35,668 nt of DNA from Actinomycetota bacterium. Its GTDB lineage: Bacteria > Actinomycetota > AC-67. Below, piece after piece: positions 10,318-30,022 of the stretch (position 1 is its first letter; every line of letters begins with the position of its first letter). The notes under the pieces are model-generated. The model made no database searches. It was given only the letters and a program-made list of their open reading frames with translations, and had not been told where the DNA came from. The position numbers and the translations under genes are program-made. The DNA is taken from the NCBI GenBank assembly GCA_040905475.1, contig JBBDRM010000069.1, forward strand, positions 1 to 35,668, written 5' to 3'.

Positions 10318-10321
<4 letters not shown>
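9362..10321 (-). CDS. tadB: TadB, type II secretion F-domain inner-membrane platform protein
   Basis: The 319-residue protein has an N-terminal membrane segment (MLLPALAAGAGLSLLVVGFL), two central helices (FVIVAAASGILGWALGLLL and VIAFVALFAMPFLAW), a T2SF core (RQLPEALSLIAGSLEAGHTF; IQQSVGGRLAELL) and a C-terminal helix pair. The order and length fit TadB. The GTG at 10321 overlaps the TadA stop as GTGA; an ATG two codons later (10315) is an alternative. In known Tad systems TadB and TadC form the inner-membrane platform driven by TadA. Confidence 0.93.
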
Positions 10322-11792
<1,471 letters not shown>

Positions 11793-11796
<4 letters not shown>

Positions 11797-13097
11797 CGAT
11801 CAACCCCCGCCGGTGTCGGCGCCGGCTGGCGCCTCAAGAATCGGAACATGCCGGTCTTGCGCTTCGCCGCTGCCGCAAGCTCGGCCATCTTGGTGCGTGC
11901 TTCCGGCGGCAGCAGGTCGTCCATGCCCTTGATGAGACCTCTCGATACGTCGGCGTCGGGGTACGAGACCAGCACCGGCTTGCCGAGGTTGATCGACCGC
12001 GAAACCTCCTTGGCGTACGGGAGCGTCGCGCGGAATCCCTGCGGGAATAGCTTGGTGATCTGGTCCACGGAGATGCCGAGGTCCTTCTCGACCTTGTTGA
12101 GAACCAGCGACACGGCGTCCGAGGAGATCCGGAGCTTCTGCAGGGTCTGCAGGAACATCCCGAGGTTCCGCACCGAGGGAAGATCCAAGGTGCACATCAC
12201 GAACAGGCGCTCGGAGAGATCGAAGGCCGCGAGCACCGTCTCGGCGAGCGCGGTCGGGGTGTCGACGACCACGTAGTCGTAGCGAGCGCGGAGCGCTTCG
12301 ATCACCCTCGTCACCTCGACCGGCGTGATGCGGTCGGCTTGGGAGGGATCCTTCGGCGCCGCGAGCACGTCGAACCGGTTCTCGTAGCTGACGACGTACT
12401 CCTGGATGTGCGAAGCGAGGTCGACGTCGGCCTCCGCCTCGTCCGCGTTCAAGACGTCGAAGATCGTGAAGTTCGGGTGCAGGCGGAGCGCGGTCGTGAC
12501 TTCACCGAACTGAAGGTCGAGGTCGACGAGCACGACGCGCGCGTCGGCCTGCTGCGAGAGCAGCAGGGCCATGTTGGTGGCGTAGAAGGTCTTCCCGCAG
12601 CCGCCGGTCGCGGAGCTGACCGTGAACACCTTCGCCGGGGTCCGCGCGGCCATGGTCGAGACGGCCGGCACGTGGGTGACCGTGGGGGCGGCCGACATCC
12701 GACGCTCGCCGATCTCCATCGCCCGCCGGATCGCTCCCCGGATCGACGTATCGTCCGCGGGGAGCTCGAGCACGTCGTCCGCTCCGACCTGGATGATCTC
12801 GCGAAGCGGTGCGTCGGGCCGGTCCTGGAACGACATGACGACCGACGTGGACGGCCACTCCTTGTGGAGCAGAGCCAGGCGTCGCAGCCCGGTCTTCGTC
12901 GCCAGAGACGGCCCGGCGAGCAGAACCGTGAACGGGCCCTCGTGCTCGTGATTCACGTGGCTGGCCGAGCCCACCTTCGTGCAGGAGACGATCTCCGGCA
13001 CCGGATTCATGTCCGCGGTCAGCGCGCGGACGCGCTCCGCCAGCTCCTCGTTCCGGTCGAGGACCAGGATCTTCGGGGTTTCCACAGCGTCCCTCAC
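11793..13097 (-). CDS. TadZ/CpaE pilus-localisation ATPase-like protein
   Basis: The 434-residue protein joins an N-terminal receiver-like domain (about residues 8-130, ILVLDRNEELAERVRAL through a GADDVLELP motif) to a ParA/MinD-type domain. The phosphate loop reads SSATGGCGKT (161-170). The lysine at the start of the normal KGGxGKT deviant Walker A is replaced by Thr164, while Lys169 is kept. Switch motifs VVLVDLDLQFGEV and YDYVVVDTP are present. TadZ/CpaE places the Tad machine in the cell, and atypical Walker A boxes are known in the family. The GTG at 13097 overlaps the cpaB stop as GTGA; a second GTG at 13085 is possible. Confidence 0.92.
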
Positions 13098-13669
13098 AGG
13101 AGGTTCTGGTACGAGCGGCCGGGCGTGACGACCGGTCGCTGATCCGGCGCGGTCAGGGCGACCCAGAGTGACTCGAACTTGGCGTAGAAGATGACCTTCT
13201 CGGCCTCGTTGACGTCGAGCGCGAGCAAGTAGGTCGCGGTGCCGGCCGTCCCCGCTGCCGGCGCGCGCACGTCGAGCACCTTGACGCCGGTGAGCACGAG
13301 CTTGGAGAGCGGGGTCTTCAGCTTCGTGTTCGGCTGGTCGGCGTCGGCGCCGTCCTTGATCGTGGCGTACAGGTTGATCGTGTCGCCCGGCTTCGCGTAT
13401 CCCGCGAGCCCGGCGACCCCGGGCAGCTCGATGGCGACCGCCTGCTTGCCCTTCGGAACCGTGAACGTGGTCACGCCGGAAACCCCGGCGGGACCGACCT
13501 CGACGGTGCGAACGTTCGGGTCGGGCGTTACGGCCGTGGCGGGCTGTTGCTGCTGCGGGGTGGCGACCGCCTTATCGCTCGAGCGCAAGCCGAAGAAAGC
13601 GAGAGCCGCGCCGACGGCGAAGACCGCGACGCCGATGATCAGGATGTTGTTCGACTTGCGATTGTTCAT
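13094..13669 (-). CDS. cpaB: CpaB/RcpC-like Flp pilus assembly protein
   Basis: The 191-residue protein is the first gene of the Tad operon. It has a short basic N-terminus, one membrane helix (ILIIGVAVFAVGAALAFFGL, 9-28), a Gln/Pro/Thr linker, and an extracellular beta domain matching the C-terminal part of CpaB/RcpC (TVPKGKQAVAIELPGVAGLAGYAKPGDTINLYA, split here into KGKQAVAIELPG and GYAKPGDTINLYA). It is shorter than classic CpaB because the N-terminal SAF repeat is missing or reduced; short forms are usual in monoderm Tad loci. The ATG at 13669 has a GGGGAG site upstream (about 13676-13681). The downstream tadZ gene overlaps as GTGA. Confidence 0.85.
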   Translation of the reverse strand: MNNRKSNNILIIGVAVFAVGAALAFFGLRSSDKAVATPQQQQPATAVTPDPNVRTVEVGPAGVSGVTTFTVPKGKQAVAIELPGVAGLAGYAKPGDTINLYATIKDGADADQPNTKLKTPLSKLVLTGVKVLDVRAPAAGTAGTATYLLALDVNEAEKVIFYAKFESLWVALTAPDQRPVVTPGRSYQNLL

Positions 13670-17716: not shown

Positions 17717-19456
17717 TCAGCTCCTGAACCAGCCGTGCGGGTCGAAGATGCGGAGCGTCCGAAGCTCTTCTCTGGTCGGGGGAGATTCGACGCGAAGGTC
17801 TCGCGCGACGCGAAGGGCCCAGCCGCACCGCTCGCGACACTCGCGCGCGATCGCGTCGCGGTCCTCGCCGAACACGCCGGTCAGCACGAACTCGCCCTGG
17901 TCTTTCTCGTAGACACCCAGAGTCGATACCAGCGTCGTGACCCGCTCCCCCGGCCCGGTGATGTACGGCACCTTATCGAGCATCCGCTCTTTCGACTGCG
18001 CGACTGCGACCACGCTTTCGGTCGCGCACGTCGCGACGTCGTTCGCGCCGCCGGAGCCCATCAGCAGCTGCTCGCCGGGGATCTCGGTGGAGTTGATGTT
18101 GCCGAAGCGGTCGACCTGTGCGGCGCCGAGCGAGCCGACCGACCGGGCGTTCGCGCCGCCGATCACGATCGCGAGCGTCGTGTCGATGTCGGCGAGCATC
18201 GTGCAGGTGGGGAAGTTGCGCTGGTTGAACAGCATCGGCTCGCCGGGCCGGGGCCAGTATCCGACGAGCCCCATCTCCGCGACCAGATCAACGATCGTCC
18301 CCTCGGCCGCGAGGTCGTAGGCGGCGAGCCAGGCCGCGAGGTTGGCCATCCCCGCGCCGGCGAGCATCGCCGTGGCATCCGTTGCGCGGACCTTCTCCTT
18401 GAGCGCCCGCGAGGCGGCGACGATCGCCGTCTCGATCGCGTTCGGCGGCTCGTCGAGCTTGACCTCGGGCAGCAACGCTTCCAGGTCCTCGCGCCACGAG
18501 TCGGGCTGCGCGCGGCGTCGGAGCTCTTTGATCCGATCCGCGCCGAGGCGGTCGAGATAGCGCTCGTGCGTGTCGCAGTCGAGCACCCACTCCTTGATCC
18601 ACGTGTCCATCTGCGCCGGGTCGCGCGAAGCGCGGCGGATGTCGACCCAGAAGTCGTAGTCCTCGCCGTACCCCTCGATGCCCTCGATGCCCGCCGGACG
18701 CATGCCGCCGGGATGGCCGCCGAGCGGCGCCTCGACGACGGCGCGAACCGCAGCGGCCGGGAGCCGGGTGAGGTGCGCGTGCTCGCGCACGAATGCGGCG
18801 TCGACGACCTTGTCGACGGTGACGATCGCACCCCGCCGGGCCGCGAGCGCGCCCGAGAGGTTCTCCATCAAGGGCGGTGAGACGAGCACGTTGCCCTGCG
18901 GGTCCGCGGCCGGCGCGTGGAAGATCGACACGTCGGGCACCAGCGCGCGGATCGCGAGCGTCCCATCGCCGAGATCCTTGATGAGCGCGGCATTGTCTTT
19001 TTGCATGCTCGAGCCGGCGAGCGAGCGAGTCGTCGCCCATCCGAGCCCGCGCGCGCCGGCGGCGAGCCGCTGCGCGAAGGTCAGGATCGACCAGTGCTCG
19101 AACTCGACGCCGTTCGACCACGCGCGCTGATAGACGGGGTTCGGGCCGGGAGTCAGATAGGAGTCGCCCGCCCAGGAGGTCACGATCTTGCGCGCAAGGC
19201 CCGCGTGCACGAGCGGCGCATAGCCGCTGGAGACCTGAACGGCCTGGAGCTCGAAGCCGGGGTCGGTGCCGTGGAAGCGGCGAAGCACCTCCCACACCGC
19301 GGCGCTGCCCCGCGTGTGCGTCATCCCGAGATGGAGCGCGTCGCCGGGCCGGACGGCGTCGGCGACCGCGTCGGCCAGCGAGCGGACCTTGTCCATGCTC
19401 GGCTCGGGCACGGCGAACCGCCGCTCGATCCACTCGCGGATCTCCGGGTCGGTCAT
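17717..19456 (-). CDS. family I CoA-transferase-fold enzyme, fused alpha and beta subunits (IpdAB/GctAB-like)
   Basis: The 579-residue protein carries both subunits of a family I CoA-transferase in one chain: alpha about 1-330, beta about 340-579. In alpha, DALHLGMTHTRGSAAV takes the place of the usual glycine-rich GGF loop, followed by VSSGYAPLVHAGL and PAADPQGNVLV. In beta, AEMGLVGYWPRPGEP (393-407) matches the position of the catalytic Glu segment, with Glu394 as candidate, and GSGGANDVA (467-475) is typical of IpdB/GctB-like subunits. IpdAB acts as a ring-opening hydrolase in steroid breakdown; other members transfer CoA. Which applies here is open. The ATG at 19456 lies eight bases after a TAGACT -10-like hexamer. 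It is the first gene of the minus-strand operon, divergent from the TetR gene. Confidence 0.85.
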   Translation of the reverse strand: MTDPEIREWIERRFAVPEPSMDKVRSLADAVADAVRPGDALHLGMTHTRGSAAVWEVLRRFHGTDPGFELQAVQVSSGYAPLVHAGLARKIVTSWAGDSYLTPGPNPVYQRAWSNGVEFEHWSILTFAQRLAAGARGLGWATTRSLAGSSMQKDNAALIKDLGDGTLAIRALVPDVSIFHAPAADPQGNVLVSPPLMENLSGALAARRGAIVTVDKVVDAAFVREHAHLTRLPAAAVRAVVEAPLGGHPGGMRPAGIEGIEGYGEDYDFWVDIRRASRDPAQMDTWIKEWVLDCDTHERYLDRLGADRIKELRRRAQPDSWREDLEALLPEVKLDEPPNAIETAIVAASRALKEKVRATDATAMLAGAGMANLAAWLAAYDLAAEGTIVDLVAEMGLVGYWPRPGEPMLFNQRNFPTCTMLADIDTTLAIVIGGANARSVGSLGAAQVDRFGNINSTEIPGEQLLMGSGGANDVATCATESVVAVAQSKERMLDKVPYITGPGERVTTLVSTLGVYEKDQGEFVLTGVFGEDRDAIARECRERCGWALRVARDLRVESPPTREELRTLRIFDPHGWFRS

Positions 19457-19536: not shown

Positions 19537-19580
19537 TGACGTGACCCATGCGTCACGTGACGGAAATGGCGTCAGGTGAC
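19537..19580. promoter_or_regulatory. operator cluster in the tetR/CoA-transferase divergent promoter
   Basis: This 44-base stretch is packed with GTGAC/GTCAC half-sites. GTGAC (19541-19545), six bases, then GTCAC (19552-19556) form the TGAC-N6-GTCA arrangement also present at 21945-21958 and 25432-25445. Overlapping it is the perfect 12-base palindrome CGTCACGTGACG (19551-19562), and a further near-palindrome GTCAGGTGAC lies at 19571-19580. The site is 18 bases from the tetR start codon, so autorepression and repression of the divergent operon are likely. Confidence 0.7.
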
Positions 19581-19597
19581 ACGGGGCGAGGGGGATC

Positions 19598-20296
19598 ATG
19601 GCCAAGGGCTCGAGCAAGAAGATCGCCACCCGCAGCGCCGGTCCCACCAACGGCAGCCAGACCGGCCGCACCCGGGGCGAGGGAGCGGTCCGCGTCCTCG
19701 GCGAGCAGGGGGAACGGACGCGCCAGCGGCTCCTGGACGCTGCCAAGAAGGTCTTCCGCGAGCGCTCCTACCCCGAGACGCGCGTCGACGACATCACCCA
19801 GGAGGCCGGCACGAGCCACGGCGCCTTCTACCTCTACTTCTCGAACAAGGCCGAGGTTCTCGAGGCCCTCGCGATCGGCACCGCCGAGCGCATGTACGTG
19901 CTCGCCGACCAGCTCGAGGGGATCCAGAAGGGCGAAGCCGGCTACGAGCAGCTGCGCCGCTGGATGGAGTTCTTCATCGACAACTACGAGGAGAACTCGC
20001 CCGTCGTCGTCGCGTGGATGTCGGCCCGCCCCCAGGACGAGCGGTTCGACAAGCTCGGCCGCGAGGTGCTGGCGAAGTTCGCCGGCCGCATCGCCCAGGC
20101 GATCCGGCATTCCCGGAGCCAGGAGGGTCGCGACGGGATCCACGCGGGGATCGCCGCCGTCTCGCTCGTCGCGATGATCGAGCGCTTCTGTTACTACTGG
20201 CTCGTCCGCGGCGCCGACTTCAAACGGGCCGACGTCGCCGAGACGATGGCCGCGATCTGGCACCAAACGATCTTCGGCGCCTCACACCGCGACTGA
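19598..20296 (+). CDS. TetR family transcriptional regulator, likely local repressor
   Basis: The 232-residue protein has an N-terminal DNA-binding domain typical of TetR: RTRQRLLDAAKKVFRERSY, then VDDITQEAGTSHGAFYLYFSNKAEVLEAL (about residues 40-90; the recognition helix is around GTSHGAFYLYF). A basic, Ser/Gly-rich tail of about 38 residues precedes it. The C-terminal ligand domain has aromatic residues (FCYYWLVRGADF) and could bind an acyl-CoA or hydrophobic ligand. The ATG at 19598 follows GAGGGGG with very short spacing. It faces the CoA-transferase operon and leads the acyl-CoA dehydrogenase and cupin genes. The palindromes upstream of it and at two other operons suggest it represses the whole catabolic region; that is inference from shared sites. 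Confidence 0.93.
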   Translation: MAKGSSKKIATRSAGPTNGSQTGRTRGEGAVRVLGEQGERTRQRLLDAAKKVFRERSYPETRVDDITQEAGTSHGAFYLYFSNKAEVLEALAIGTAERMYVLADQLEGIQKGEAGYEQLRRWMEFFIDNYEENSPVVVAWMSARPQDERFDKLGREVLAKFAGRIAQAIRHSRSQEGRDGIHAGIAAVSLVAMIERFCYYWLVRGADFKRADVAETMAAIWHQTIFGASHRD

Positions 20297-20310
20297 CGCC
20301 GGCACAGCCG

Positions 20311-21393
20311 ATGGAGCTCGAGCTCTCCGACGAACAGCGGGCGCTTCGCGAAGCGGCGCGCGCGTTCCTCGAGCGGGAAGCGCCGGTCTCGTACGCCCGC
20401 GAGATGATGGACGACCCGCGCGGATGGCGCGACGACGTCTGGCGAAAGATGGCCGCGCTGGGCTGGATGGGCCTGCCGTTCCCCGAGGACGCCGGCGGAG
20501 TCGGCATGGGGTTCTCGGCGCTCGCGATCCTGCTCACCGAGATGGGTCGGGTCGTGCTGCCGGGCCCGTACTTCTCGACCGTCGTGCTCGCGGGCCACGC
20601 GGTGCTCGAGGCCGGATCCGAGGAACAGCGGAAGGAGTTGCTCCCGGCGATCGCGAGCGGCGAGATCACCTGGGCCGCGGCGCTGTCCGACACCGGCGTC
20701 GAGGCCCGGCCCGACGGCGATGCGTTCGTTCTGAACGGCGAGGCGCGCTACGTGCTCGACGGCGCGACCGCCGACCGGATCGTGGTCGAGGCAGGCGGCG
20801 AGCTGTTCGTGCCGGATGGCGCCGGCCTCTCGGCGACTCCCGTCGAGCTGATGGACTCCACCCGCAGGGTCGCGCACGTCCGCTTCGACGGCGCGCGGGC
20901 GGAGCGCCTCGGCGACGGTGATCACGGCGCGCTCGACCGCGTGCTCGACCGCGCGTACGTCGGGCTGTCCGCGGAGATGCTGGGCGGAGCGGAGCGGGTC
21001 GTCGAGCTCTCCGTCGAGTACGCGAAGCAGCGCGTGCAGTTCGACCGGCCGATCGGCTCCTTCCAGGCCGTCAAGCATCGCGCGGCCGACATGCTCCTCG
21101 ACGTTGAATCGCTCCGGAACGCCGTCTCATTCGCGGCATGGGCGATCGAGCGCGGCCACCCGGACGCCTCGATCGCATCCTCGATGGCGAAGGCGTACGC
21201 ATCGGACGCCTACCGGCGCGTCGCCTCGAGCGGGATCCAGGTGCACGGCGGGATCGGGTTCACCTGGGAGCACGACATGCACCTGTACTTCAAGCGCGCG
21301 AAGGCGTCGGAGGCGGCGTTCGGTTCCGCGGACTGGCACCGGGAACGGCTGGCGCGCCTGCTCGAGACGCGGTACGGATCGGGAGGCCACTGA
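20311..21393 (+). CDS. acyl-CoA dehydrogenase
   Basis: The 360-residue flavoprotein introduces the alpha-beta double bond into an acyl-CoA. The N-terminal helical domain begins LELSDEQRALREAARAFLE, the middle beta domain has ITWAAALSDTG (about 119-129), and the C-terminal helical domain has RVQFDRPIGSFQAVKH (241-256) and HGGIGFTWEHDMHLYFKRA (312-330). The GFTWEHD block is typical of the FadE26/FadE28-like acyl-CoA dehydrogenases of actinobacterial steroid and branched-chain breakdown, where subunits often pair as heteromers. No second dehydrogenase lies beside it. The classic catalytic Glu is not obvious, so it might act as a homodimer with a non-canonical base or need a partner encoded elsewhere. 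It starts 14 bases after the tetR stop. Confidence 0.93.
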   Translation: MELELSDEQRALREAARAFLEREAPVSYAREMMDDPRGWRDDVWRKMAALGWMGLPFPEDAGGVGMGFSALAILLTEMGRVVLPGPYFSTVVLAGHAVLEAGSEEQRKELLPAIASGEITWAAALSDTGVEARPDGDAFVLNGEARYVLDGATADRIVVEAGGELFVPDGAGLSATPVELMDSTRRVAHVRFDGARAERLGDGDHGALDRVLDRAYVGLSAEMLGGAERVVELSVEYAKQRVQFDRPIGSFQAVKHRAADMLLDVESLRNAVSFAAWAIERGHPDASIASSMAKAYASDAYRRVASSGIQVHGGIGFTWEHDMHLYFKRAKASEAAFGSADWHRERLARLLETRYGSGGH

Positions 21394-21395
21394 TT

Positions 21396-21761
21396 ATGGA
21401 ACACGTATCGAGAGTCATCCGGAAGGAAGATGCGGAGCTGCGCACGGCCGACGGCGTCGAGGTCGTCGTTGCGATCTCGAAGGAGACCGTCGGCTCGCCG
21501 ACGCTGTGGTTCGGCAGTTTCGCTACCGAACCGGGCGTCAAGGTTCCGCCGCATTACCACACAGCCGACACGGGGGCCTATGTGGTCAGCGGGCGGGCAG
21601 CTTTCGAGATCGACGGGGAGCGGCACGAGGTGATCGCCGGGGAGTATCTCTACGTCCCGAAAGGTGTGGTCCACACGGAGGAGACCGTCGGGAACGAGAC
21701 GGCGTTCGGCATCTTCGCCCGCGACGAGGCCGGCGGGGAGACCGTCTACCTCGAGCAGTAG
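21396..21761 (+). CDS. small cupin-domain protein
   Basis: The 121-residue protein is a single cupin barrel. Motif 1 reads VKVPPHYHTADTGAYVVSG with HxH kept, but the usual Glu four residues on is replaced (TADTG). Motif 2 reads GEYLYVPKGVVHTEE with the metal-binding His. With two or three His ligands and no Glu it may bind metal weakly or serve as a ligand-binding or isomerase cupin. The ATG at 21396 lies two bases after the acyl-CoA dehydrogenase stop, so it is in the same transcript. After it come 257 non-coding bases ending in the amidohydrolase promoter. Confidence 0.85.
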   Translation: MEHVSRVIRKEDAELRTADGVEVVVAISKETVGSPTLWFGSFATEPGVKVPPHYHTADTGAYVVSGRAAFEIDGERHEVIAGEYLYVPKGVVHTEETVGNETAFGIFARDEAGGETVYLEQ

Positions 21762-21940
21762 GGCTCGCTCGACCCAGAGCGCGCCGCCAGTCCGGGAGCG
21801 GGTGGGAGGTCGGCCAGGGGCTCGATGCCTTTCTTGCGGCGCCAGCGGACACTGTGTGTACTCCTCCGCAGCAAGAACCGCGCCGCAGCGGGACCGGCTA
21901 CGAGCGGGCGGGCGGCCACCATGGATCCGCGGCCAGGACT

Positions 21941-21983
21941 GACCTGACGCGCTTGTCAGGTCGGGGGGGTTCGGGTTTATGCT
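21941..21983 (+). promoter_or_regulatory. operator and promoter of the amidohydrolase operon
   Basis: A perfect inverted repeat has arms GACCTGAC (21941-21948) and GTCAGGTC (21955-21962) around the spacer GCGCTT. It includes TTGTCA (21953-21958), a -35-like hexamer, and is followed 19 bases later by TATGCT (21978-21983), a good -10. The ATG at 22019 is 35 bases downstream. A repressor bound here would block RNA polymerase. The rest of the gap from 21762 shows no gene or clear structure. Confidence 0.75.
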
Positions 21984-22018
21984 TGGCCCACGCCGCTGGA
22001 ACCGCCAAGGGGGTCGCG

Positions 22019-23188
22019 ATGGGTCGCAGGAAGTACGAGATCGTCTCCGCCGACGTTCATATCCTCGAACCGCCCGACATCTGGGAGAAGCACCTCCCCA
22101 AGAAGTACGCCGAGCACGCCCCGAAGCTCGTGAAGGACCACGAGGGCGGCGACGCGTGGCAGTTCTCGGTCGGCGCTCCCGATCCGATCGGCCTCGTCTC
22201 GACGCCGGGCCGCCGCTTCGAGGAGTTCAAGTGGTTCGGCGTCTCCTACGACGAGACGCGACCCGGCTGCTGGGACGGCAAGGAGCGCCTCCGCGACATG
22301 GACATCGACGGGATCGATGCGGAGATCATCTTCCCGCCGCAGCGCACGATGGGTCACTGGCTCTCGATGCCCGACGAGGAGATCTCGTTGGCCGGGATCG
22401 ACGCCTACAACGAGTTCATCTTCGACGAGTTCGCCGCCGCGGACCCCGAGCGTCTCATCTCCTGCTACCAGATCCCGAACCTCGGCATCGATACCGCGCT
22501 CAAGTATCTCGACAAGGCCATCAAGAAGAAGGCGCACACGGTCGTCATCTCGTCGTGGCCGTCGGGTGGCGAGAACATCTCGCCGGAGGACGACGCGTTC
22601 TTCCAGGCCTGCGTCGACGCGAACATGCCGCTGAACATCCACATCTCGCTCATGAGCCGCGCGTCGGGCGTGAAGTCATACGAGTCGGGCCAGAAGGTGA
22701 CCAGCGGCGTGAAGAAGGGCGGCGGCGCGGCGAACCAACGAGCGGTCGGCGCGATGTCGGGCGTGTTCACGCGGACGACGCCGGTCTTCACCGGCTTCCT
22801 GTTCTCCGGCGTGCTCGACCGGATCCCCGATCTGCAGATCGTCCTGACCGAGATCGGCGTCGGCTGGATCCCTCATTACCTGGAGCAGCTCGACGACCGC
22901 TACTGGCGGAACCGCGGCTGGGGCGAGATCACGATCAAGGAGCCCCCGAGCTACTACTGGCGCAAGAACTTCGCGGCCACGTTCATGATCGACTTCACAG
23001 GCGTGTACCAGCGGCACCTCGTCGGCGTGAAGAACATGATGTGGTCCACGGACTATCCGCACCACGGGAACGACTGGCCGTACTCGCGGATGCGGATCAA
23101 CGAGCAGATGGTCGGCGTATCCGACGAGGACCGGTACGACATCCTCGCGGGCAACGCGGTCCGGATCTTCAAGCTCCCGGAGAAGTAG
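22019..23188 (+). CDS. amidohydrolase-2 family metal-dependent hydrolase or decarboxylase
   Basis: The 389-residue TIM-barrel protein belongs to the amidohydrolase-related (ACMSD-like) superfamily, whose members hydrolyse amides, esters or lactones or decarboxylate cyclic acids. The first metal motif is ISADVHILEP near the N-terminus, where the typical family form is DxHxxE/P. Later motifs are the barrel His in PLNIHISL, then the C-terminal STDYPHHGNDWP with the conserved Asp, and NAVRIFKL. Many close homologues in Actinomycetota sit in steroid or terpenoid degradation clusters. The ATG at 22019 is 35 bases after a -10 hexamer; no strong Shine-Dalgarno is seen, so translation may depend on AAGGGGG at about 22007-22013. 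It is first in a two-gene operon with the luciferase-like gene. Confidence 0.9.
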   Translation: MGRRKYEIVSADVHILEPPDIWEKHLPKKYAEHAPKLVKDHEGGDAWQFSVGAPDPIGLVSTPGRRFEEFKWFGVSYDETRPGCWDGKERLRDMDIDGIDAEIIFPPQRTMGHWLSMPDEEISLAGIDAYNEFIFDEFAAADPERLISCYQIPNLGIDTALKYLDKAIKKKAHTVVISSWPSGGENISPEDDAFFQACVDANMPLNIHISLMSRASGVKSYESGQKVTSGVKKGGGAANQRAVGAMSGVFTRTTPVFTGFLFSGVLDRIPDLQIVLTEIGVGWIPHYLEQLDDRYWRNRGWGEITIKEPPSYYWRKNFAATFMIDFTGVYQRHLVGVKNMMWSTDYPHHGNDWPYSRMRINEQMVGVSDEDRYDILAGNAVRIFKLPEK

Positions 23189-23202
23189 CGACGTCGGCGT
23201 CC

Positions 23203-24084
23203 CTGCGGTTCGGGCTGGGGACCATCCCGCTCGGCCAGATGGGGGTACGGCTCGGCGACTCGCCGGCCGAGACCGTCGTCGCCTTGGCTCGGGCCGCGGA
23301 CGAGCTCGGCTTCGACTTCATCACCGCGCAGGATCACTCGGTCGCGCCGCGGCAGTGGGCCGCCGACGGCGGCGGGCAGACGTGGTACGAGCCGTTCGTG
23401 GTGCTGTCGTACGCGGCGGCGGTTACCTCGCGTGTGCGTCTGCTCACCGACGTGCTGATCGTGCCGTACCGCTCGCCGTTCCAGATCGCGAAGATCGCCG
23501 CCTCACTGGACCAGCTGTCGGGAGGGCGGCTGATCCTCGGCGTGGGGTCGGGCTATCTCGAGGAGGAGTTCAACATCCTCGGTGCGTCGTTCGCCGAGCG
23601 CGGCGCGGTCACCGACGAGTCGCTCGAGGTCCTGAAGCGCTGCTGGGCCGAGGAGTGGCTCGACGTCTCGACGCCGCACTTCGAGGCGAACGACGTCTCG
23701 ATCTCACCCCGGCCGCTCCAGTCGCCCCGGCCGCCGATCTGGGTCGGCGGGAACTCGTGGCGGGCGCTCCGAAGGGCCGTCGAGCACGGAGACGGATGGA
23801 CGCCGTTCTTTCGCGAGGATCCCGAGCGCGTGCGGGAAGGTGTGCGCCGGGCGCGGGACGACTACGGCTTGGCCTTCGATCGCACGTTCGACATCGCCGT
23901 GCCGATCCGCCGGGGGTTACACAACGTGGACGGCTCGGTGAACGTGAACTCCGCTCGGCGCCAAGCCGACGCGATGCACGAGGCCGGCGCCACGCACATC
24001 AAGGTCGGGTTCAAGGCTTCTACGCCGGACGAGTACGTGTCGAAGATGGAGACGTTCGCGCGCGGCGTGATCGACCGCTCCTAG
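23203..24084 (+). CDS. luciferase-like (LLM) F420- or FMN-dependent oxidoreductase
   Basis: The protein has the LLM TIM-barrel pattern: FGLGTIPLGQ as strand 1, ELGFDFITAQDHSV, then SRVRLLTDVLIVPYRSP, LDQLSGGRLILGVGSGYLE (a hallmark of F420-dependent members) and PPIWVGGNS. The start is a problem. The amidohydrolase stop is at 23186-23188, and in the right frame no ATG, GTG or TTG occurs before ATG 23239, which would delete strand 1. CTG at 23203 gives the natural N-terminus RFGLGTIP and is proposed here (293 residues); ATG 23239 would give 281. The enzyme probably oxidises or monooxygenates an intermediate of the catabolic pathway. The family is firm, the start uncertain. Confidence 0.85.
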   Translation: MRFGLGTIPLGQMGVRLGDSPAETVVALARAADELGFDFITAQDHSVAPRQWAADGGGQTWYEPFVVLSYAAAVTSRVRLLTDVLIVPYRSPFQIAKIAASLDQLSGGRLILGVGSGYLEEEFNILGASFAERGAVTDESLEVLKRCWAEEWLDVSTPHFEANDVSISPRPLQSPRPPIWVGGNSWRALRRAVEHGDGWTPFFREDPERVREGVRRARDDYGLAFDRTFDIAVPIRRGLHNVDGSVNVNSARRQADAMHEAGATHIKVGFKASTPDEYVSKMETFARGVIDRS

Positions 24085-24188
24085 AGCGACCGCCAGTATC
24101 GGACAAATCAGACACTTAAGCTTAGCCGCGCTTCGTTTTCACTGCGGGATCAAGTGATAAGCCACGTGCACCTAAGTTTCCAGGAGAG

Positions 24189-24230
24189 ATAAGGATGCTG
24201 TGATATCCTTATGACTCGTGAAAACGAGTC
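24189..24230. promoter_or_regulatory. two adjacent inverted repeats before the fic gene
   Basis: ATAAGGAT (24189-24196) and ATCCTTAT (24205-24212) form a perfect inverted repeat with an eight-base spacer. Immediately after it, GACTCGT (24213-24219) and ACGAGTC (24224-24230) form a perfect hairpin with a GAAA tetraloop. The pair ends 12 bases before the fic ATG. They may be an operator for the Fic protein's own winged-helix domain, or an RNA hairpin in its leader. The 158-base gap here (24085-24242) is visibly more AT-rich than its surroundings. Confidence 0.5.
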
Positions 24231-24242
24231 AAAGGGACAGAT

Positions 24243-25391
24243 ATGAGCACCAGAGCAGGCAGGTACGAAAAGCAAAGTGGAGGCTATCAGGCATTCTTAC
24301 CCGAGTTACTTCCGCCGAAGGACCTCGAGGTAGACGAGCAACTTCAAGATCTTCACTCAAAGGCGGACCAAGCGATTGGTCGCCTCGATGGGGCCGTCGC
24401 GATCCTTCCCGACGCTGATCTGTTCGTCGCCATGTATGTCCGCAGAGAGGCCGTTCTCTCGAGCCAAATCGAAGGGACTCACGCCTCGATGATGGACATC
24501 CTCGAGTACGAGGCTGCACAGGAACAAGCAGCAACGTCGGTCGACGTTCGGGAAATCTGGAACTACATCAAAGCCATGCGCCACGGTCTCGAGCGCCTCC
24601 CGGCCCTGCCCCTGTCACGTCGACTCCTGTGCGAGGTCCACAAGGTCTTGATGGATGGTGTACGCGGTGGGGAGCCTCACAAGACACCTGGCGAGGTGCG
24701 AAAGACACAGAACTGGATCGGCGGCGCTTCGCCTGCAACCGCGCGCTTCGTGCCGCCGCCTCCCGACGTTGTGGGACCTGCCTTCGCCGACCTTGAACGT
24801 TATCTCCATGAGAGGCCCGGAACGCACCTACTCAAAGCAGGGATCGCTCACGCGCAGTTCGAAACGATCCATCCATTCCTCGACGGCAACGGTCGAACAG
24901 GACGCCTGCTTATCACTTTTTGGTTAGTCGAACAGGGTGTCCTACAGCGGCCGCTTCTGTATCCCTCGCTGTTCTTCAAACAGCACAAGGACGAGTATGT
25001 CGATCGCCTTCAGGCGATCCGTGATGAGGGCGCGTGGGAGGATTGGTTGAAGTTCTTCCTCGATGGCATGGCGCAGACCGCCGTCGAGGCAACAGACACG
25101 GCCATGCATATCCTCCAACTGCGAGATGAACACCGGGTTCTGATCTCATCTCGTCTTGGACGGAGAGCCCACAACGGCCTGGAGCTCCTCGACCTTCTGC
25201 TCGGTCAGCCCACCGTGACCGCCCGGATCGTGCAGAAGCGCTTGAAGGTGTCACAGCCGACCGCTTCGGCACTCGTCGCCGATCTGGCCGAGTGCGGAAT
25301 CCTGCACGAAATGACCGGACGCAAGAAGTGGCGAGTCTTCTCCTACACGAAGTATCTGGCACTCTTCTCCGGTTATCAGAGTAGGACATAA
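24243..25391 (+). CDS. Fic-domain AMP-transferase with N-terminal inhibitory helix and winged-helix C-terminus
   Basis: The 382-residue protein has the Fic motif HPFLDGNGRTGR (210-221), complete with catalytic His210. Family members transfer AMP from ATP to protein hydroxyls. An inhibitory motif SSQIEG (73-78, pattern S/T-x3-E-G/N) precedes the Fic core, placing it among class II Fic proteins whose Glu blocks ATP. Residues about 322-356 (VTARIVQKRLKVSQPTASAL) form a helix-turn-helix, as in many Fic/DNA-binding fusions that may regulate themselves. The ATG follows AAAGGGA. Its codons are less GC-rich than those of neighbouring genes, and it separates two catabolic operons, so recent acquisition is likely. 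No partner antitoxin is visible, as expected for class II. Frame is intact. Confidence 0.94.
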   Translation: MSTRAGRYEKQSGGYQAFLPELLPPKDLEVDEQLQDLHSKADQAIGRLDGAVAILPDADLFVAMYVRREAVLSSQIEGTHASMMDILEYEAAQEQAATSVDVREIWNYIKAMRHGLERLPALPLSRRLLCEVHKVLMDGVRGGEPHKTPGEVRKTQNWIGGASPATARFVPPPPDVVGPAFADLERYLHERPGTHLLKAGIAHAQFETIHPFLDGNGRTGRLLITFWLVEQGVLQRPLLYPSLFFKQHKDEYVDRLQAIRDEGAWEDWLKFFLDGMAQTAVEATDTAMHILQLRDEHRVLISSRLGRRAHNGLELLDLLLGQPTVTARIVQKRLKVSQPTASALVADLAECGILHEMTGRKKWRVFSYTKYLALFSGYQSRT

Positions 25392-25430
25392 CCAGGGAAC
25401 ACAAACTTCAAGGACCCACTCGGTCCTCGG

Positions 25431-25449
25431 TTGACACGCGCGTCAGGTC
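25431..25449. promoter_or_regulatory. operator and -35 of the first thiolase/DUF35 operon
   Basis: TTGACA (25431-25436), a consensus -35, overlaps TGAC (25432-25435), which is followed by six bases (ACGCGC) and GTCAGGTC (25442-25449). The right arm is identical to that of the site at 21955-21962, and the spacing is the same. A -10 is less clear; GACACT at 25455-25460 is the best candidate. The site lies about 40 bases before the gene start. Confidence 0.7.
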
Positions 25450-25487: not shown

Positions 25488-26642
25488 CTGAACGACTATC
25501 CGCGCGACGCCGCAGCCATCGTGGGCGTCGGGCACACCGAGTTCTCGAAGAACATCGGGCGGCCCGAGCGGACGATCGCGCTCGAGGCCATCAAGATGGC
25601 GCTCGACGACGCCGGCCTGACCGCGAAAGACGTCGACGGCCTGGTCAAGTTCTCGCTCGAGAACACCATGGAGGTCGAGATCGTCCGGAACCTCGGCATC
25701 CCGAACCTCTCGTTCTTCGGGGACGTCGGTTACGGCGGCGGCGCGGGCTGCGGCGCGGTCGGGCACGCGGCGATGGCGATCGCGACCGGCGTGGCGGAGA
25801 CCGTCGTCGTCTGGCGTGCCCGGAATCGCGGATCCGGCGGGCGGCCGTGGGCGACGCGACCCACGAACAAGCAGCCCGGCGAGATGCAGTGGTTCCTGCC
25901 GTTCGGCCTGTCGCGTCCGGTGGATCAGATCGCGATGCTGACGCGCCGCCACATGATCGAATACGGCACCACCCAGGAGCACCTCGGCCATGTGGCGACG
26001 TCGGTCCGCGAGCACGCGACCCGGAACCCGAACGCCATGATGCGCAAGCCGATGACAATGGATGACTACCTGGCCGCGCGCTGGGTGTCCGAACCGCTGC
26101 GCCTCTTCGACTGCTGCCTCGAGTCGGACGGCGCGCTCGCGTTCGTGCTGACCACGCCCGAGCGGGCCGCGGCGCTGAAGCAGCCGGCCGTGTTGGTGCG
26201 GGCGGCGTCGCAAGGGATCGGGCCCGACCACCTCGTGATGGCGAACTACTTCACGGCGAACCCGCTTGACACGCCGGCCCGGTACGCAGCGCAGGAGCTG
26301 TGGCGGCTCGCCGGGATGGGGCCCGACGAGATCGACTGCGCCCAGTTCTACGACGCGTTCTCGCCGCTGATCGTGATCTCGCTCGAAGAGTACGGCTTCT
26401 GCAAGCCCGGCGAGGGTGGGCCGTTCGCGGCCGAAGGCAATCTGAAGCTGGGCGGTGCGTTGCCCTCGAACACCAGCGGCTCGTCGCTGTCCGAGGCGTA
26501 CGTTCACGGGATGAACCTGATCCTCGAGGGCGTGCGCCAGCTGCGCGGCACGTCGACGTCGCAGGTCGAAAACTGCGAGAACGTGCTCGTCACGAGCGGC
26601 AACGGTGTGCCGACGTCGTCGCTGGTATTGAGGAAGCCTTGA
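25488..26642 (+). CDS. thiolase-fold lipid-transfer-type protein (Ltp2/SCPx-like), first copy
   Basis: This protein of about 384 residues has the thiolase superfamily fold, closest in pattern to actinobacterial lipid-transfer proteins. In steroid side-chain breakdown Ltp2 is a retro-aldolase that works in complex with a DUF35 protein. A Cys codon at 25749-25751 (GGAGCGAVGH) stands near the nucleophile position, FYDAFSP and SEAYVHGMN supply the family Tyr/His motifs, and EGVRQLRGTSTSQV leads to the C-terminus. No ATG, GTG or TTG exists between the in-frame stop at 25461 and GTG 25521; that GTG would truncate the first strand (AAIVGVGHTEF). CTG 25488, preceded by GGGGAGG, gives the natural start and is proposed. 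The DUF35 gene overlaps its stop. Thiolytic activity cannot be excluded. Confidence 0.85.
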   Translation: MNDYPRDAAAIVGVGHTEFSKNIGRPERTIALEAIKMALDDAGLTAKDVDGLVKFSLENTMEVEIVRNLGIPNLSFFGDVGYGGGAGCGAVGHAAMAIATGVAETVVVWRARNRGSGGRPWATRPTNKQPGEMQWFLPFGLSRPVDQIAMLTRRHMIEYGTTQEHLGHVATSVREHATRNPNAMMRKPMTMDDYLAARWVSEPLRLFDCCLESDGALAFVLTTPERAAALKQPAVLVRAASQGIGPDHLVMANYFTANPLDTPARYAAQELWRLAGMGPDEIDCAQFYDAFSPLIVISLEEYGFCKPGEGGPFAAEGNLKLGGALPSNTSGSSLSEAYVHGMNLILEGVRQLRGTSTSQVENCENVLVTSGNGVPTSSLVLRKP

Positions 26643-27052
26643 GTTCCCAGCCGCTCCGTCCCGTGCCGGGCCCCGACGATGCCTCGGAGCCCTTCTGGGA
26701 AGCGTGCGCGCGGCACGTGCTCTTGCTGCAGGCGTGCGGGGGATGCGGCACGCTGCGGTTCCCACCGCGCCCCATGTGTCCCCGGTGCAACTCGTTCGAG
26801 CAGGCGTGGGTGCCGGCTTCGGGTCGTGGACGGGTCTGGTCCTGGGTGATCGCCCACCCGCCCGTGCTCCCGGCGTTCGCCGACCGCGCGCCGTACAACG
26901 TGATCGTCGTCGAGCTCGACGAAGGGGTGCGGATGATCGGCAACTTGCTCGAAACGCCGAACGAGGAGATCGCCGAGGGCATGCCCATAGAGGTCGCGTG
27001 GGAGGACGTCGAGGACGGCGTTAGCCTTCCGCAATGGAGACCGACTCAGTGA
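26639..27052 (+). CDS. DUF35/OB-fold acyl-CoA-associated zinc-ribbon protein (ChsH2-like), first copy
   Basis: The 137-residue protein has an N-terminal rubredoxin-like zinc ribbon, CGGCGTLRFPPRPMCPRCN (two CxxC pairs), followed by an OB-fold domain (GRGRVWSWVIAHPP through VVELDEGVRMIGNL). Such proteins partner thiolase-fold enzymes; in the ChsH2/Ltp2 case the DUF35 domain is needed for the aldolase. The TTG at 26639 overlaps the thiolase stop as TTGA, supporting tight coupling and a complex with that protein. The preceding helix, EPFWEACARHVLLLQAC, is also typical for the family. Confidence 0.9.
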   Translation: MSSQPLRPVPGPDDASEPFWEACARHVLLLQACGGCGTLRFPPRPMCPRCNSFEQAWVPASGRGRVWSWVIAHPPVLPAFADRAPYNVIVVELDEGVRMIGNLLETPNEEIAEGMPIEVAWEDVEDGVSLPQWRPTQ

Positions 27053-27065
27053 AGGGGTGCCGACG

Positions 27066-27893
27066 ATGACCGACGACGCGACGAGGGATAGCCTCAAGAT
27101 CTGGGATGCGCTCGCACCCGCTTACGAGCAGTACCGCGTGTTCATGAAGGTGACCGAGAATCCCGTCACCGAGCGGATGATCGCCGCGATGGAAGCCAAG
27201 CCCGGCGACACCATCCTCGAGCTCACCGCCGGGCCTGGGGAACTCGGCCTGACGCTCGCCGAGGACCGGCCAGACGTAAACGTGATCATCAGCGACTTCG
27301 CGCCGAGCATGGTCTCGATCGCCGAAACCAACACCAAGGAGCGTCGGGTGTCGAACGTCGAGACGCGCGTCATCGACGCGCAAGCGATCGACCTCCCCGA
27401 CGCGTCCGTGGACGGAGTGCTGTCGCGCTACGGCCTGATGCTCGTCCCGGACGTGGCAAAGGCGTTCGCGGAGATCCGGCGCGTCCTCAAGCCGGGCCGC
27501 ACGCTGGCGTACGCGGTGTGGGGTCCCTTGGAGACGAACCCGTGGATGATGATGCTCGGCGCGGTCCTGATGCAGCGCGGGCACTTCACGCCTCCTCCCG
27601 GCGGGGGGTTCTTCCCGCTGACCAAGGAGGAGGACAACAAAGCCGCCGCGTCGGCGGCCGGCTTCGCGCACGTAGAGGTCGAGACGATCGACCATCCCCA
27701 CGAGCATCCGAGCTTCGAGAGCTACTGGGAACTCTCCACAGGTTGCTCGGGACCTCTGGTGCCGATCGTCGAGAGCCTCTCCGAAGATGAGCGCAAGGCC
27801 GTGCGCGCTCAGATCGAGGAATACACCGCGTCGTTCCGTTCCGGCAATGGGATGAGTTTCCCGTCCCGGCGACTCTTCGTGCGAGCGTCGTGA
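27066..27893 (+). CDS. SAM-dependent methyltransferase (UbiE-like)
   Basis: The 275-residue protein has a methyltransferase core: PGDTILELTAGPGELGL as motif I, VIISDFAPSMV as the ribose-binding acidic strand end, ARDLP-like QAIDLPDASVDGVLSRYGL as motif II/III, and RRVLKPGRTLAYAVWGP. ATG 27066 was preferred to GTG 27057 because GAAGGGG lies eight bases before it. The gene starts 13 bases after the DUF35 stop, and its own stop overlaps the acyl-CoA synthetase start as GTGA. A methyltransferase inside a thiolase/CoA-ligase operon is unexpected for a purely degradative pathway; it may modify the substrate or act as an accessory. Acceptor unknown. Confidence 0.9.
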   Translation: MTDDATRDSLKIWDALAPAYEQYRVFMKVTENPVTERMIAAMEAKPGDTILELTAGPGELGLTLAEDRPDVNVIISDFAPSMVSIAETNTKERRVSNVETRVIDAQAIDLPDASVDGVLSRYGLMLVPDVAKAFAEIRRVLKPGRTLAYAVWGPLETNPWMMMLGAVLMQRGHFTPPPGGGFFPLTKEEDNKAAASAAGFAHVEVETIDHPHEHPSFESYWELSTGCSGPLVPIVESLSEDERKAVRAQIEEYTASFRSGNGMSFPSRRLFVRAS

Positions 27894-29962
27894 CGGCCGG
27901 GCTCGATCGCTTCTTCCACCCGCGCACGATCGCGGTGATCGGCGCGACCGACGACAAGCGCAAGCCCGGCTACGCGCTGCTCATGAAGGTCAAGGCCCGC
28001 GCCGATCGCGACGGCGCCACCGTTTACGGAGTGAACCCGCGCCTCACCGACATAGACGGGATCGCGTGCTACCCCACGCTCGAGGAGGTCCCTGCCGACA
28101 TCGACGTCGCCGTGATCATGATCGGCGACGCCGAGAAGGGCCTCCGCGACGCCGTCGCCAAGAAGGCGCGCTTCGCGGTGATCTTCACTGCCGGCTTCCG
28201 CGAGGTCGGCGCCGAGGGCGCGAAGCGCGAGGAGGAGCTCGCCAAGATCGCACGCGACGGCGGGGTGCGACTCTTCGGCCCCAACACGAACGTCAACGCG
28301 TTCGAGATGTTCCCCGAGACCGACGGGAAGAAGCTCGCGCTGATCACGCAGTCGGGTCACCAGGGTCGGCCGATCGCGCAAGGCGTCGAGCTCGGCATCG
28401 GCGTGAAGTACTGGGCACCGACCGGGAACGAGGCCGACCTCGAGTCGGCCGACTTCATCGAGTACTTCGTCGACCTGCCCGACGTCGCCGTGGTCTCCGC
28501 GTATATCGAGGGATTCAAGTCGATCCCCCGCCTCAAGGCCGCGGCCGAGAAGGCCGCGCGCGCCGGCAAGCCGATCGTGCTCGTGAAGATCGGGCGGACC
28601 GAGGCCGGGCAGCGGATGGCGATGGCGCACACCGGGCACCTGACCGGATCGGACGATGTGATGAGCGCCTTCTTCCGTCAGTACGGGATGGTGCGGGTGG
28701 ACGACCTCGACGAGCTGCTCGAGACCTCGGCTCTGTTCACGCGGCTCCCGCGTCCGAACGGCGAGGGCTTGTGCGTCTACGCGATCTCCGGCGGGACGGG
28801 AGCGCACATGGCCGACCTCTGCGCATGGGGCGGGCTGACGCTTCCAACGCTGACGGAGGGATCGCAGCAGAAGCTCCGCGAGGCGATTCCCGACTATCTC
28901 ACGGTGTCGAACCCGGTCGACAACGGGGCGCAGGTCGTTCGGAAGGGCGGGCTGAACAAGCAGTGCATCGACATCTGCCTCGACGACCCGAACGTCGACA
29001 TCCTCGTCTGTCCGATCACCGGGATCCTGCCATCGATGTCGAAGGTCGTCGCCGGCGACATCGTCGACGCGTACAAAGAAGCGAAGAAGCCGGTCATCGT
29101 GATCTGGGGTTCGCCGGTGACCGACGAGGAGGGCTATCGGATCCTCGTCGATGGCGGCGTCCCGATGTTCCGCTCGTTCCGCTCCTTCGTGGTCGGCCTG
29201 CGCCGGTACCTGGACTACTGGAAGTTCCTCTCGACCTTCGAGGAGCGCGTCGCGCCGGCGCCGCGAGTGCCGAGCGGCTTCGAGACGATGCTCGCCGGTT
29301 CGGGGGCGCTGTCCGAGTACGACTCGGCGTCGCTCGCCGCGCAGTTCGGCGTTCCGTTCGCGCGATCGGCCTTGTGCGAGACCGAGGAGAAGGCGGTCGA
29401 CGCGGCTTCGAAGCTCGGCGGGCGCGTCGTGATGAAGGCGTGTGGGTCCGGGATCCTGCACAAGTCCGACGCGGGACTCGTTCGCATCGGCGTGACCGAC
29501 CCAGCGGCGACCTTCCGTGAGCTCGACGCGGCCGGACGGGAGCACGCCGGCGACGCCGGCTACGACGGCGTGCTCGTGCAGGAGCTCGCGGACGACGGCG
29601 AAGAGGTGATCGTCGGGTTCACGAACGATCCCCTGTTCGGGCCGGTCGTCCTGTTCGGGCTCGGCGGGATCTTCGTCGAGGTCTTGAAAGATTTCGCGCT
29701 CCGCGTCGCCCCGCTGACCCGGCGCGACGCCGAAGAGATGATCCGCGAGGTCAAAGGCTTCCCGCTGCTCGACGGCGCACGCGGCCGCCCGAAAGCCGAC
29801 GTCGACGCGCTCGCCGACCTGCTCATGAAGGTGTCGCAGATGGCGTGCGAGGTCGGCGGCCGGGTCTCCGAACTGGACCTGAACCCGGTGCGGGTCCGGC
29901 CTGCCGGGCAAGGCGTTATCGCACTCGACGCCCTGGTGGTGCGTGCTCTCGGGAGCGTCTGA
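27890..29962 (+). CDS. ADP-forming acyl-CoA synthetase (fused CoA-binding and ATP-grasp)
   Basis: The 690-residue protein has the NDP-forming acyl-CoA synthetase layout: CoA-binding Rossmann domain (about 5-130, TIAVIGATDDKRKPGY), succinyl-CoA-ligase-like domains (about 145-450, LITQSGHQGRP, then IGRTEAGQRMAMAHTGHLTGS) and an ATP-grasp domain (about 465-690, GFETMLAGSGALSEYDSASL, VVMKACGSGILHKSDAGLV, ELDLNPVRVRP). His247 in AHTGHLTGS matches the place of the phosphorylated His in this family. It would activate a carboxylic acid with CoA and ATP, giving ADP. The GTG at 27890 overlaps the methyltransferase stop as GTGA. It likely primes the substrate for the thiolase-fold enzymes; the acid is unknown. 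Confidence 0.93.
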   Translation: MTAGLDRFFHPRTIAVIGATDDKRKPGYALLMKVKARADRDGATVYGVNPRLTDIDGIACYPTLEEVPADIDVAVIMIGDAEKGLRDAVAKKARFAVIFTAGFREVGAEGAKREEELAKIARDGGVRLFGPNTNVNAFEMFPETDGKKLALITQSGHQGRPIAQGVELGIGVKYWAPTGNEADLESADFIEYFVDLPDVAVVSAYIEGFKSIPRLKAAAEKAARAGKPIVLVKIGRTEAGQRMAMAHTGHLTGSDDVMSAFFRQYGMVRVDDLDELLETSALFTRLPRPNGEGLCVYAISGGTGAHMADLCAWGGLTLPTLTEGSQQKLREAIPDYLTVSNPVDNGAQVVRKGGLNKQCIDICLDDPNVDILVCPITGILPSMSKVVAGDIVDAYKEAKKPVIVIWGSPVTDEEGYRILVDGGVPMFRSFRSFVVGLRRYLDYWKFLSTFEERVAPAPRVPSGFETMLAGSGALSEYDSASLAAQFGVPFARSALCETEEKAVDAASKLGGRVVMKACGSGILHKSDAGLVRIGVTDPAATFRELDAAGREHAGDAGYDGVLVQELADDGEEVIVGFTNDPLFGPVVLFGLGGIFVEVLKDFALRVAPLTRRDAEEMIREVKGFPLLDGARGRPKADVDALADLLMKVSQMACEVGGRVSELDLNPVRVRPAGQGVIALDALVVRALGSV

Positions 29963-29990
29963 CGTGTCAGACATGTCTGACGTGTTTCAG
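29958..29990. promoter_or_regulatory. palindromic repeats after the acyl-CoA synthetase gene
   Basis: An 11-base direct repeat GTCTGACGTGT occurs at 29958-29968 and 29976-29986, 18 bases apart. Between and across them is a perfect 16-base palindrome, GTCAGACATGTCTGAC (29966-29981). The first repeat includes the stop codon of the preceding gene. The site uses the same CTGAC/GTCAG words as the operators at 21941 and 25432 but with different spacing, so it may bind the same or a related TetR protein. It lacks the loop and T-run of a terminator. Confidence 0.5.
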
Positions 29991-30022
29991 AAACCCTTGC
30001 GAACACATCGCCTCCTCCCGAT

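What the first reader, a model, noticed from the sequence alone, without database searches (positions are those of the whole stretch)
19537..25449. Shared TGAC-N6-GTCA operator points to a TetR-controlled catabolic regulon
Three promoter regions carry TGAC, six bases, GTCA: 19542-19555 (tetR/CoA-transferase), 21945-21958 (amidohydrolase; perfect eight-base arms) and 25432-25445 (thiolase/DUF35; right arm identical to that at 21955-21962). At the last two the site overlaps a -35-like hexamer. By base composition I expect fewer than one such match in the window by chance. The TetR gene at 19598 beside the first site is the obvious regulator, so scattered operons would form one regulon.
Basis: partly seen in the sequence, partly recalled or inferred. 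Interest (0 to 1): 0.8.

Follow-up and report, generated by a model that had tools for sequence, protein, structure and literature searches.

The report
TetR regulon for CoA-linked catabolism
A short mirror-image DNA tag in front of scattered breakdown-pathway genes is almost certainly the docking site of a nearby TetR-type switch protein, and the same tag-and-switch pair recurs across a large, poorly studied class of soil and water bacteria (Acidimicrobiia).

Summary
TGAC-N6-GTCA lies at exactly the three stated places. The window-only statistics are modest (0.70 expected; 3 of 100 shuffles give three or more), but comparison makes the case. The genome holds 37 such palindromes, and 13 lie within 100 nt upstream of genes (1.6 expected, p=3e-9). 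Those genes are mostly CoA-ester or oxidative catabolic genes. Sites recur before orthologous genes in three sister genomes.

Around 49 homologues of the TetR at 19598, this arm and this spacing alone are enriched: 57 intergenic copies, against at most 6 for any other arm or spacer. In 148 Acidimicrobiia genomes, all 27 with at least 10 sites carry the TetR subfamily, which only 38 of 148 have. 15 of 28 orthologues have an exact site, and 21 of 28 a TGAC-N6-GTC[AG] site, in their own promoter. The divergent CoA-transferase/tetR pair with an operator between recurs in distant relatives.

Binding, repression and ligand (an acyl-CoA is my guess) are inferred.

The parts
19540..19557 (.). Operator site 1, CGTGACCCATGCGTCACG, between the divergent CoA-transferase and tetR genes
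   Evidence: PWM score 17.7; same position carries an operator in L112, L119, L121, L122, L124, L127, L133, L135
21941..21962 (.). Operator site 2, GACCTGACGCGCTTGTCAGGTC (8-bp perfect arms), 61 nt upstream of the amidohydrolase
   Evidence: score 27.0; conserved upstream of the orthologue in G001, G003, G004, L103, L105
25430..25449 (.). Operator site 3, GTTGACACGCGCGTCAGGTC, 76 nt upstream of the thiolase-like/ChsH2-type OB-fold operon
   Evidence: score 23.0; conserved upstream of the 78%-identical orthologue in G004 and in the matching G003 promoter
19598..20296 (+). TetR-family regulator (232 aa), PF00440 HTH plus EthR-type C-terminal domain; proposed regulator
   Evidence: subfamily-to-operator link
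17717..19456 (-). Fused two-domain CoA-transferase, divergent from tetR; likely target of site 1
   Evidence: PF01144; 72% identical, also divergent from tetR, in G001
20311..21393 (+). Acyl-CoA dehydrogenase, probably co-transcribed with tetR
21396..21761 (+). Cupin-domain protein, same apparent operon
22019..23188 (+). Amidohydrolase (PF04909), target of site 2
23239..24084 (+). Luciferase-like monooxygenase, downstream in the same apparent operon
25521..26642 (+). Thiolase-like protein (PF22691), target of site 3
26663..27052 (+). ChsH2-type zinc-ribbon/OB-fold partner of the thiolase-like protein
   Evidence: PF01796, PF12172
27066..27893 (+). Methyltransferase-like ORF, possibly in the site-3 operon
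   Evidence: ORF and gene call only; name read from sequence, not searched against a family library
27890..29962 (+). Acyl-CoA synthetase (ADP-forming type), possibly in the site-3 operon

Best explanation
The three palindromes are operators of one regulon of about a dozen promoters. The TetR-family dimer encoded at 19598-20296 binds the roughly 18-bp sequence (A)CCTGAC-N6-GTCAGG(T), whose half-sites lie about one helical turn apart. At most targets the operator sits roughly 20-90 nt before the start codon, over the promoter, so binding should block RNA polymerase (repression). At the tetR/CoA-transferase divergent promoter it would give autoregulation and control of the CoA-transferase. A pathway intermediate, most likely an acyl-CoA thioester of the substrate degraded by these enzymes, would bind the EthR/FadR-like C-terminal pocket and release the repressor. 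This would switch on CoA-transferase, acyl-CoA dehydrogenase, amidohydrolase, thiolase/OB-fold, P450, acyl-CoA ligase, hydratase and aldehyde dehydrogenase genes together. Shown here: the sites, their promoter placement, their conservation, and their statistical and positional link to this TetR subfamily. Inferred: physical binding, sign of regulation, and ligand.
For: Exact sites. 37 in the genome against 2 for the reversed control; 13 in promoter zones, p=3e-9. Downstream genes: P450 with AMP-ligase, enoyl-CoA hydratase with MaoC-like protein, thiolase-like, amidohydrolase with acyl-CoA dehydrogenase, aldehyde dehydrogenase. Orthologous promoters in G001/G003/G004 keep the site for amidohydrolase and P450 (all three), thiolase-like and LmbU genes (G003/G004). 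TetR-homologue loci: 57 intergenic and 12 coding copies, against at most 5 intergenic for the 23 other arms and at most 6 for other spacers; 57 of 69 intergenic with 10% noncoding sequence, p about 1e-44. 17 hits near tetR against 1.1 expected from the same genomes' own rate. Co-occurrence 27/27, Fisher 4e-21, while the control motif is equal in both groups (1.4 against 1.2). Orthologue promoters carry the site: 15 of 28 exact, 21 of 28 with GTC[AG]. CoA-transferase/tetR intergenic operator in 8 of 10 distant pairs. Recognition-helix residues S73-H74-G75 and F77-K84 invariant in the 27-sequence alignment. Of 26 TetR genes in the genome only this one sits directly at a site. Fold nearest EthR, then FadR, PfmR and FasR.
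Against: No binding or expression data exist. The tetR promoter of the three nearest relatives has no exact site: degenerate in G003/G004, none in G001. G002 has a 49% orthologue with the same recognition helix but only one intergenic site among three matches. About half of the 37 genomic matches are in coding sequence and presumably incidental. Some promoter sites precede genes not obviously catabolic: DUF3179, DUF11, a sigma factor, a secreted protein. Co-occurrence is not corrected for phylogeny. Gene starts come from my own gene caller.
Confidence: 0.88

Rival explanations
1. The palindrome is a real operator, but of a different regulator (another TetR paralogue, or the LmbU-family protein whose gene lies 23-29 nt behind a site); the TetR at 19598 is a neighbour or mere target.
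For: The LmbU-family gene (NF038070) is directly preceded by a site in G000, G003 and G004; another TetR gene (C52, L037:2118-2762) lies about 1.2 kb from that site; the tetR promoter site is not exact in near relatives.
Against: LmbU is absent from G001, which has the regulon, and from all 56 tested genomes outside the family. Lincomycin LmbU is reported to bind CGCCGGCG (PMC6510168). The C52 TetR has a quite different recognition helix. Sites concentrate at loci chosen only by homology to the window TetR, and in its orthologues' own promoters.
Confidence: 0.08
2. Chance or promoter-linked sequence: TGAC is part of -35 hexamers, so the repeats merely mark promoters.
For: Sites 2 and 3 overlap -35-like hexamers; the window-only p is about 0.03.
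Against: Both arms and exactly a 6-bp spacer are needed: other spacers and all other arm permutations are not enriched. Enrichment appears only in genomes with the TetR.
Confidence: 0.02
3. The TetR binds the sites but acts as an activator or dual regulator (as FasR does) rather than a repressor.
For: TetR-family activators exist (FasR, PMC7382501), and FasR is among the structural neighbours.
Against: Most sites lie close to or over the presumed promoter, typical of repression; divergent TetRs under 200 bp from their neighbour are usually repressors (PMC3511530).
Confidence: 0.12

Closest known systems
KstR2 (TetR repressor of sterol-derived CoA catabolism in mycobacteria; PMC3068626)
   Same: TetR regulator next to CoA-thioester catabolic genes, palindromic operator in its own promoter and in divergent promoters, operators mostly 22-82 nt from starts
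   Different: Operator is AnCAAGnnCTTGnT with N2 spacing, not TGAC-N6-GTCA; 15-gene local regulon, whereas here the sites are scattered over many contigs
BkaR (mycobacterial TetR repressor of branched-chain keto-acid genes; PMC3920632)
   Same: Autoregulatory TetR with a palindromic operator and a few additional sites near CoA-linked genes
   Different: Operator GTTA(N)T(N4)A(N)TAAC; smaller regulon
EthR (M. tuberculosis)
   Same: Closest solved sequence (profile E 2e-20) and fold (TM-score 0.83 by target length); Pfam EthR_C
   Different: About 22% identity; its operator is described as larger, multi-copy and not a classical palindrome (PMC4482099); no ethA-like neighbour identified here
Bacillus FadR / M. 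tuberculosis FasR (acyl-CoA-sensing TetRs)
   Same: Sequence and fold relatives; plausible model for ligand sensing
   Different: NCBIfam scores 44 and 38 bits, far below the cut-offs of 200 and 330
MftR (mycofactocin TetR, acyl-CoA responsive; PMC8728441)
   Same: Actinobacterial TetR with acyl-CoA ligands and a palindromic operator
   Different: Operator T-N2-GGCA-N5-TGCC-N2-A; NCBIfam score 28 against a cut-off of 225

Membership tests
TetR family of regulators | N-terminal TetR helix-turn-helix (PF00440) | tested here: met
   PF00440, 55.6 bits over a 24-bit cut-off, residues 45-91
TetR family of regulators | All-helical fold with a C-terminal ligand domain | tested here: met
   AlphaFold2 model pLDDT 84.6, nine helices; EthR, FadR, FasR, PfmR as nearest folds; PF21313 EthR_C
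TetR family of regulators | Palindromic operator in its own promoter and in target promoters | tested here: met
   Site 1 here; 15 of 28 orthologues exact, 21 of 28 with GTC[AG]
TetR family of regulators | Dimer binds the operator; ligand releases it | not testable with these tools
   Needs purified protein
KstR2 | Operator AnCAAGnnCTTGnT | tested here: not met
   Operator here is CCTGAC-N6-GTCAGG; KstR2 motif from PMC3068626
BkaR | Operator GTTA(N)T(N4)A(N)TAAC | tested here: not met
   Motif differs
FadR (Bacillus type), FasR, MftR equivalogs | Score above the NCBIfam equivalog cut-off | tested here: not met
   44/200, 38/330 and 28/225 bits
EthR | Orthology to EthR, with a divergent ethA-type monooxygenase target | tested here: not met
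   About 22% identity; the divergent gene is a CoA-transferase
LmbU as regulator of this motif | Present wherever the regulon is | tested here: not met
   Absent from G001, which has the regulon

The most novel reading that the evidence does not exclude
This TetR subfamily is a major, previously undescribed regulator of CoA-thioester catabolism across much of Acidimicrobiia and a neighbouring uncultured actinobacterial lineage, with up to about 37 perfect CTGAC-N6-GTCAG sites per genome. In the window's family it also places an LmbU-family regulator under its control, making a two-tier cascade.
Probability: 0.5. Interest if true: 0.62.

Novelty: new member of a known kind. Interest (0 to 1): 0.52.

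Why it matters
The window lies in an uncharacterised actinobacterial lineage with only four other family members among the genomes held, and many catabolic genes there and in Acidimicrobiia have no assigned role. A reliable operator sequence groups scattered genes into one pathway. It predicts which P450, amidohydrolase, thiolase/OB-fold and ligase genes act together, and names one protein to purify and screen with acyl-CoAs to learn the substrate. No paper in the library searched holds any of the motif spellings tried. It does not change how TetR regulation is understood.

Tried and rejected
Autoregulation in the closest relatives: looked for and not found as an exact site. LmbU as the common regulator: rejected because it is absent from G001. 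Site at L039 (FadA-like thiolase, conserved in G003/G004): rejected as a coding artefact, because the site encodes the start of the protein (T-D-A-A-V-I) and moves with it. L057, L050, L030: sites 147-177 nt from any start, not counted in the promoter set. First PWM comparison of tetR promoters with neighbouring promoters gave only p=0.014 because the neighbours also carry sites; replaced by permutation and genome-rate controls. The sigma-70 scan gave no promoter and is uninformative. Literature searches for the motif spellings gave nothing; the known mycobacterial TetR operators read here (KstR2, BkaR, MftR) do not match.
Full report
What was checked. The pattern TGAC-N6-GTCA occurs in the window at 19542, 21945 and 25432 and nowhere else. 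All three are intergenic: site 1 lies between a divergent CoA-transferase and the tetR gene, site 2 is 61 nt before an amidohydrolase, site 3 is 76 nt before the called start of a thiolase-like/OB-fold operon. From the window alone the case is weak: 0.70 matches are expected and 3 of 100 shuffles reach three.

Genome scan. The window is contig 69 of a 4.24-Mb, 173-contig genome. The genome holds 37 palindromic sites, against 2 for the reversed control; with a GG flank the count is 14 against 0. That zone is 4.4% of the sequence, so 1.6 are expected (binomial p=3e-9). Genes behind these sites: cytochrome P450 and, divergently, an AMP-binding ligase (L031); DUF3179 behind a perfect CCTGACGCGCGCGTCAGG (L033); enoyl-CoA hydratase with a ligase behind it, and divergently a MaoC-like protein (L036); an LmbU-family regulator (L037, named by NCBIfam); a second thiolase-like protein (L040); amidohydrolase and, divergently, an acyl-CoA dehydrogenase whose called start is 166 nt from the site (L041); aldehyde dehydrogenase and a carotenoid-synthesis-like protein (L059); a secreted protein without family (L047); a DUF11 protein (L045); a sigma factor (L035). 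The remaining matches are mostly inside coding sequence and presumably incidental.

Sister genomes. Four genomes of the same family were available. In G001, G003 and G004 most CTGAC-N6-GTCA sites are intergenic and promoter-proximal. Orthologous promoters share them: the amidohydrolase of site 2 in all three (63% identity), the P450 in all three (54-56%), the thiolase-like gene of site 3 in G004 (78%; about 84 nt upstream when the start is set as in the window) with the matching promoter site in G003, the second thiolase-like gene in G003 (90% over the aligned part), and the LmbU gene in G003 and G004. The promoter alignments show the site as an island in otherwise diverged sequence. G002 has a 49%-identical TetR but only three matches, one of them intergenic.

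Which regulator. Of 26 TetR genes in the genome only the one at 19598 sits directly at a site, and it has no close paralogue (next hit E 7.5e-10). The strongest evidence comes from its homologues elsewhere. In 49 loci chosen only by homology to this TetR (653 kb, mostly Acidimicrobiia MAGs), TGAC-N6-GTCA is found 57 times in intergenic and 12 times in coding DNA. None of the 23 other orderings of the arm exceeds 5 intergenic, and no other spacer from 2 to 12 exceeds 6. With 10.3% noncoding sequence the intergenic bias has p about 1e-44, and the median distance to a gene start is 41 nt. In eight of those genomes the tetR locus holds 17 GG-flanked matches, where 1.1 would be expected from the same genomes' own rate.

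Co-occurrence. In 148 Acidimicrobiia genomes the subfamily (E below 1e-35 against L101's TetR) is present in 38. Genomes with it have a mean of 16.3 CTGAC-N6-GTCAG sites, those without 1.6, while the reversed control motif averages 1.4 and 1.2. All 27 genomes with ten or more sites carry the TetR (Fisher 4e-21). This is not corrected for shared ancestry.

Autoregulation and the CoA-transferase pair. Of 28 subfamily members whose upstream region could be read, 15 have an exact site and 21 a TGAC-N6-GTC[AG] site within 300 nt upstream of the aligned start (the second figure counted from its listing). In ten distant loci with the same CoA-transferase (39-45% identical) near tetR, eight have an operator between the two genes, which is the arrangement of site 1. 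Against this, the three nearest relatives keep the divergent pair but not an exact site. Site 1 also has the lowest score of the three window sites (17.7 against 23.0 and 27.0).

The protein. It has a TetR HTH and an EthR-type C-terminal domain. The recognition-helix segment SHG[A/T]FYLYFSNK is nearly invariant in the subfamily; one homologue has R for H (L127), one has S at the A/T position (L102), and sister genomes have N (G001) or A (G003, G004) in place of the later S. The nearest solved relatives by sequence profile and by fold are EthR, then acyl-CoA regulators such as FadR, PfmR and FasR. It falls far below the cut-offs of every named NCBIfam regulator. The symmetrised motif from 28 regulon sites outside tetR promoters reads A-C-C-TGAC-G-C-G-C-G-C-GTCA-G-G-T, with an information-bearing A/T three bases outside the core.

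Mechanism. Established by computation: the site, its exact spacing, its promoter placement, its conservation, and its association with this TetR subfamily. Inferred: that the dimer binds it, that binding represses (from the close placement at promoters and from the general behaviour of divergent TetRs under 200 bp from their neighbour, PMC3511530), and that the inducer is an acyl-CoA (from target genes and relatives). The substrate is unknown. Thiolase-like/ChsH2-type OB-fold pairs, P450, CoA-transferase, acyl-CoA dehydrogenase and ligase suggest stepwise breakdown of a hydrophobic carboxylic acid or terpenoid/steroid-like side chain, but this is a guess. In Acidimicrobiia loci the sites also precede periplasmic binding proteins of branched-chain transport type, SMP-30-like proteins and type III CoA-transferases, so the regulon content varies.

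Comparison. It works like KstR2 or BkaR but its operator matches neither, nor MftR. No paper in the library held any of the motif spellings searched. I file it as a new member of a known kind: a TetR-controlled catabolic regulon with its own subfamily and operator.

Noticed in passing
29955-29995: A second dispersed intergenic element, GCGTCTGACGTGTCAGACATGTCTGACGTG (9-bp periodic TCTGACRTG/TCAGACRTG), lies upstream of the second thiolase-like ORF at 30088. The genome has 24 matches to TCTGACNNGTCAGA with up to one mismatch, against 1 for the control, and nearly all inspected copies are intergenic. It may be a REP-like repeat or a second operator.
   Followed up: partly
L037:3991-4764 (own genome, C52): An LmbU-family transcription factor gene sits 23 nt behind an operator, with a further CCTGAC-N5-GTCAGG palindrome just upstream; its G003/G004 orthologues are likewise behind a site and near an AGTGTTAAGT-AGC-ACTTAACACT inverted repeat.
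   Followed up: partly
24243-25391: A Fic/DOC-family protein with a C-terminal HTH lies between the amidohydrolase/LLM operon and site 3, without an operator of its own.
   Followed up: no
8008-13669: A minus-strand block reads as Flp/tad-type pilus assembly genes (TadE-like, TadB/TadC-like, CpaF ATPase, CpaE, CpaB), judged from ORF translations only.
   Followed up: no
L091 (JACQXY010000003.1), probably the same record as G002:C2: A MAG titled Acidobacteria carries a TetR 50% identical to the window's; it appears to be the same contig (102,841 bases) as the same-family genome G002, so the title looks wrong.
   Followed up: no
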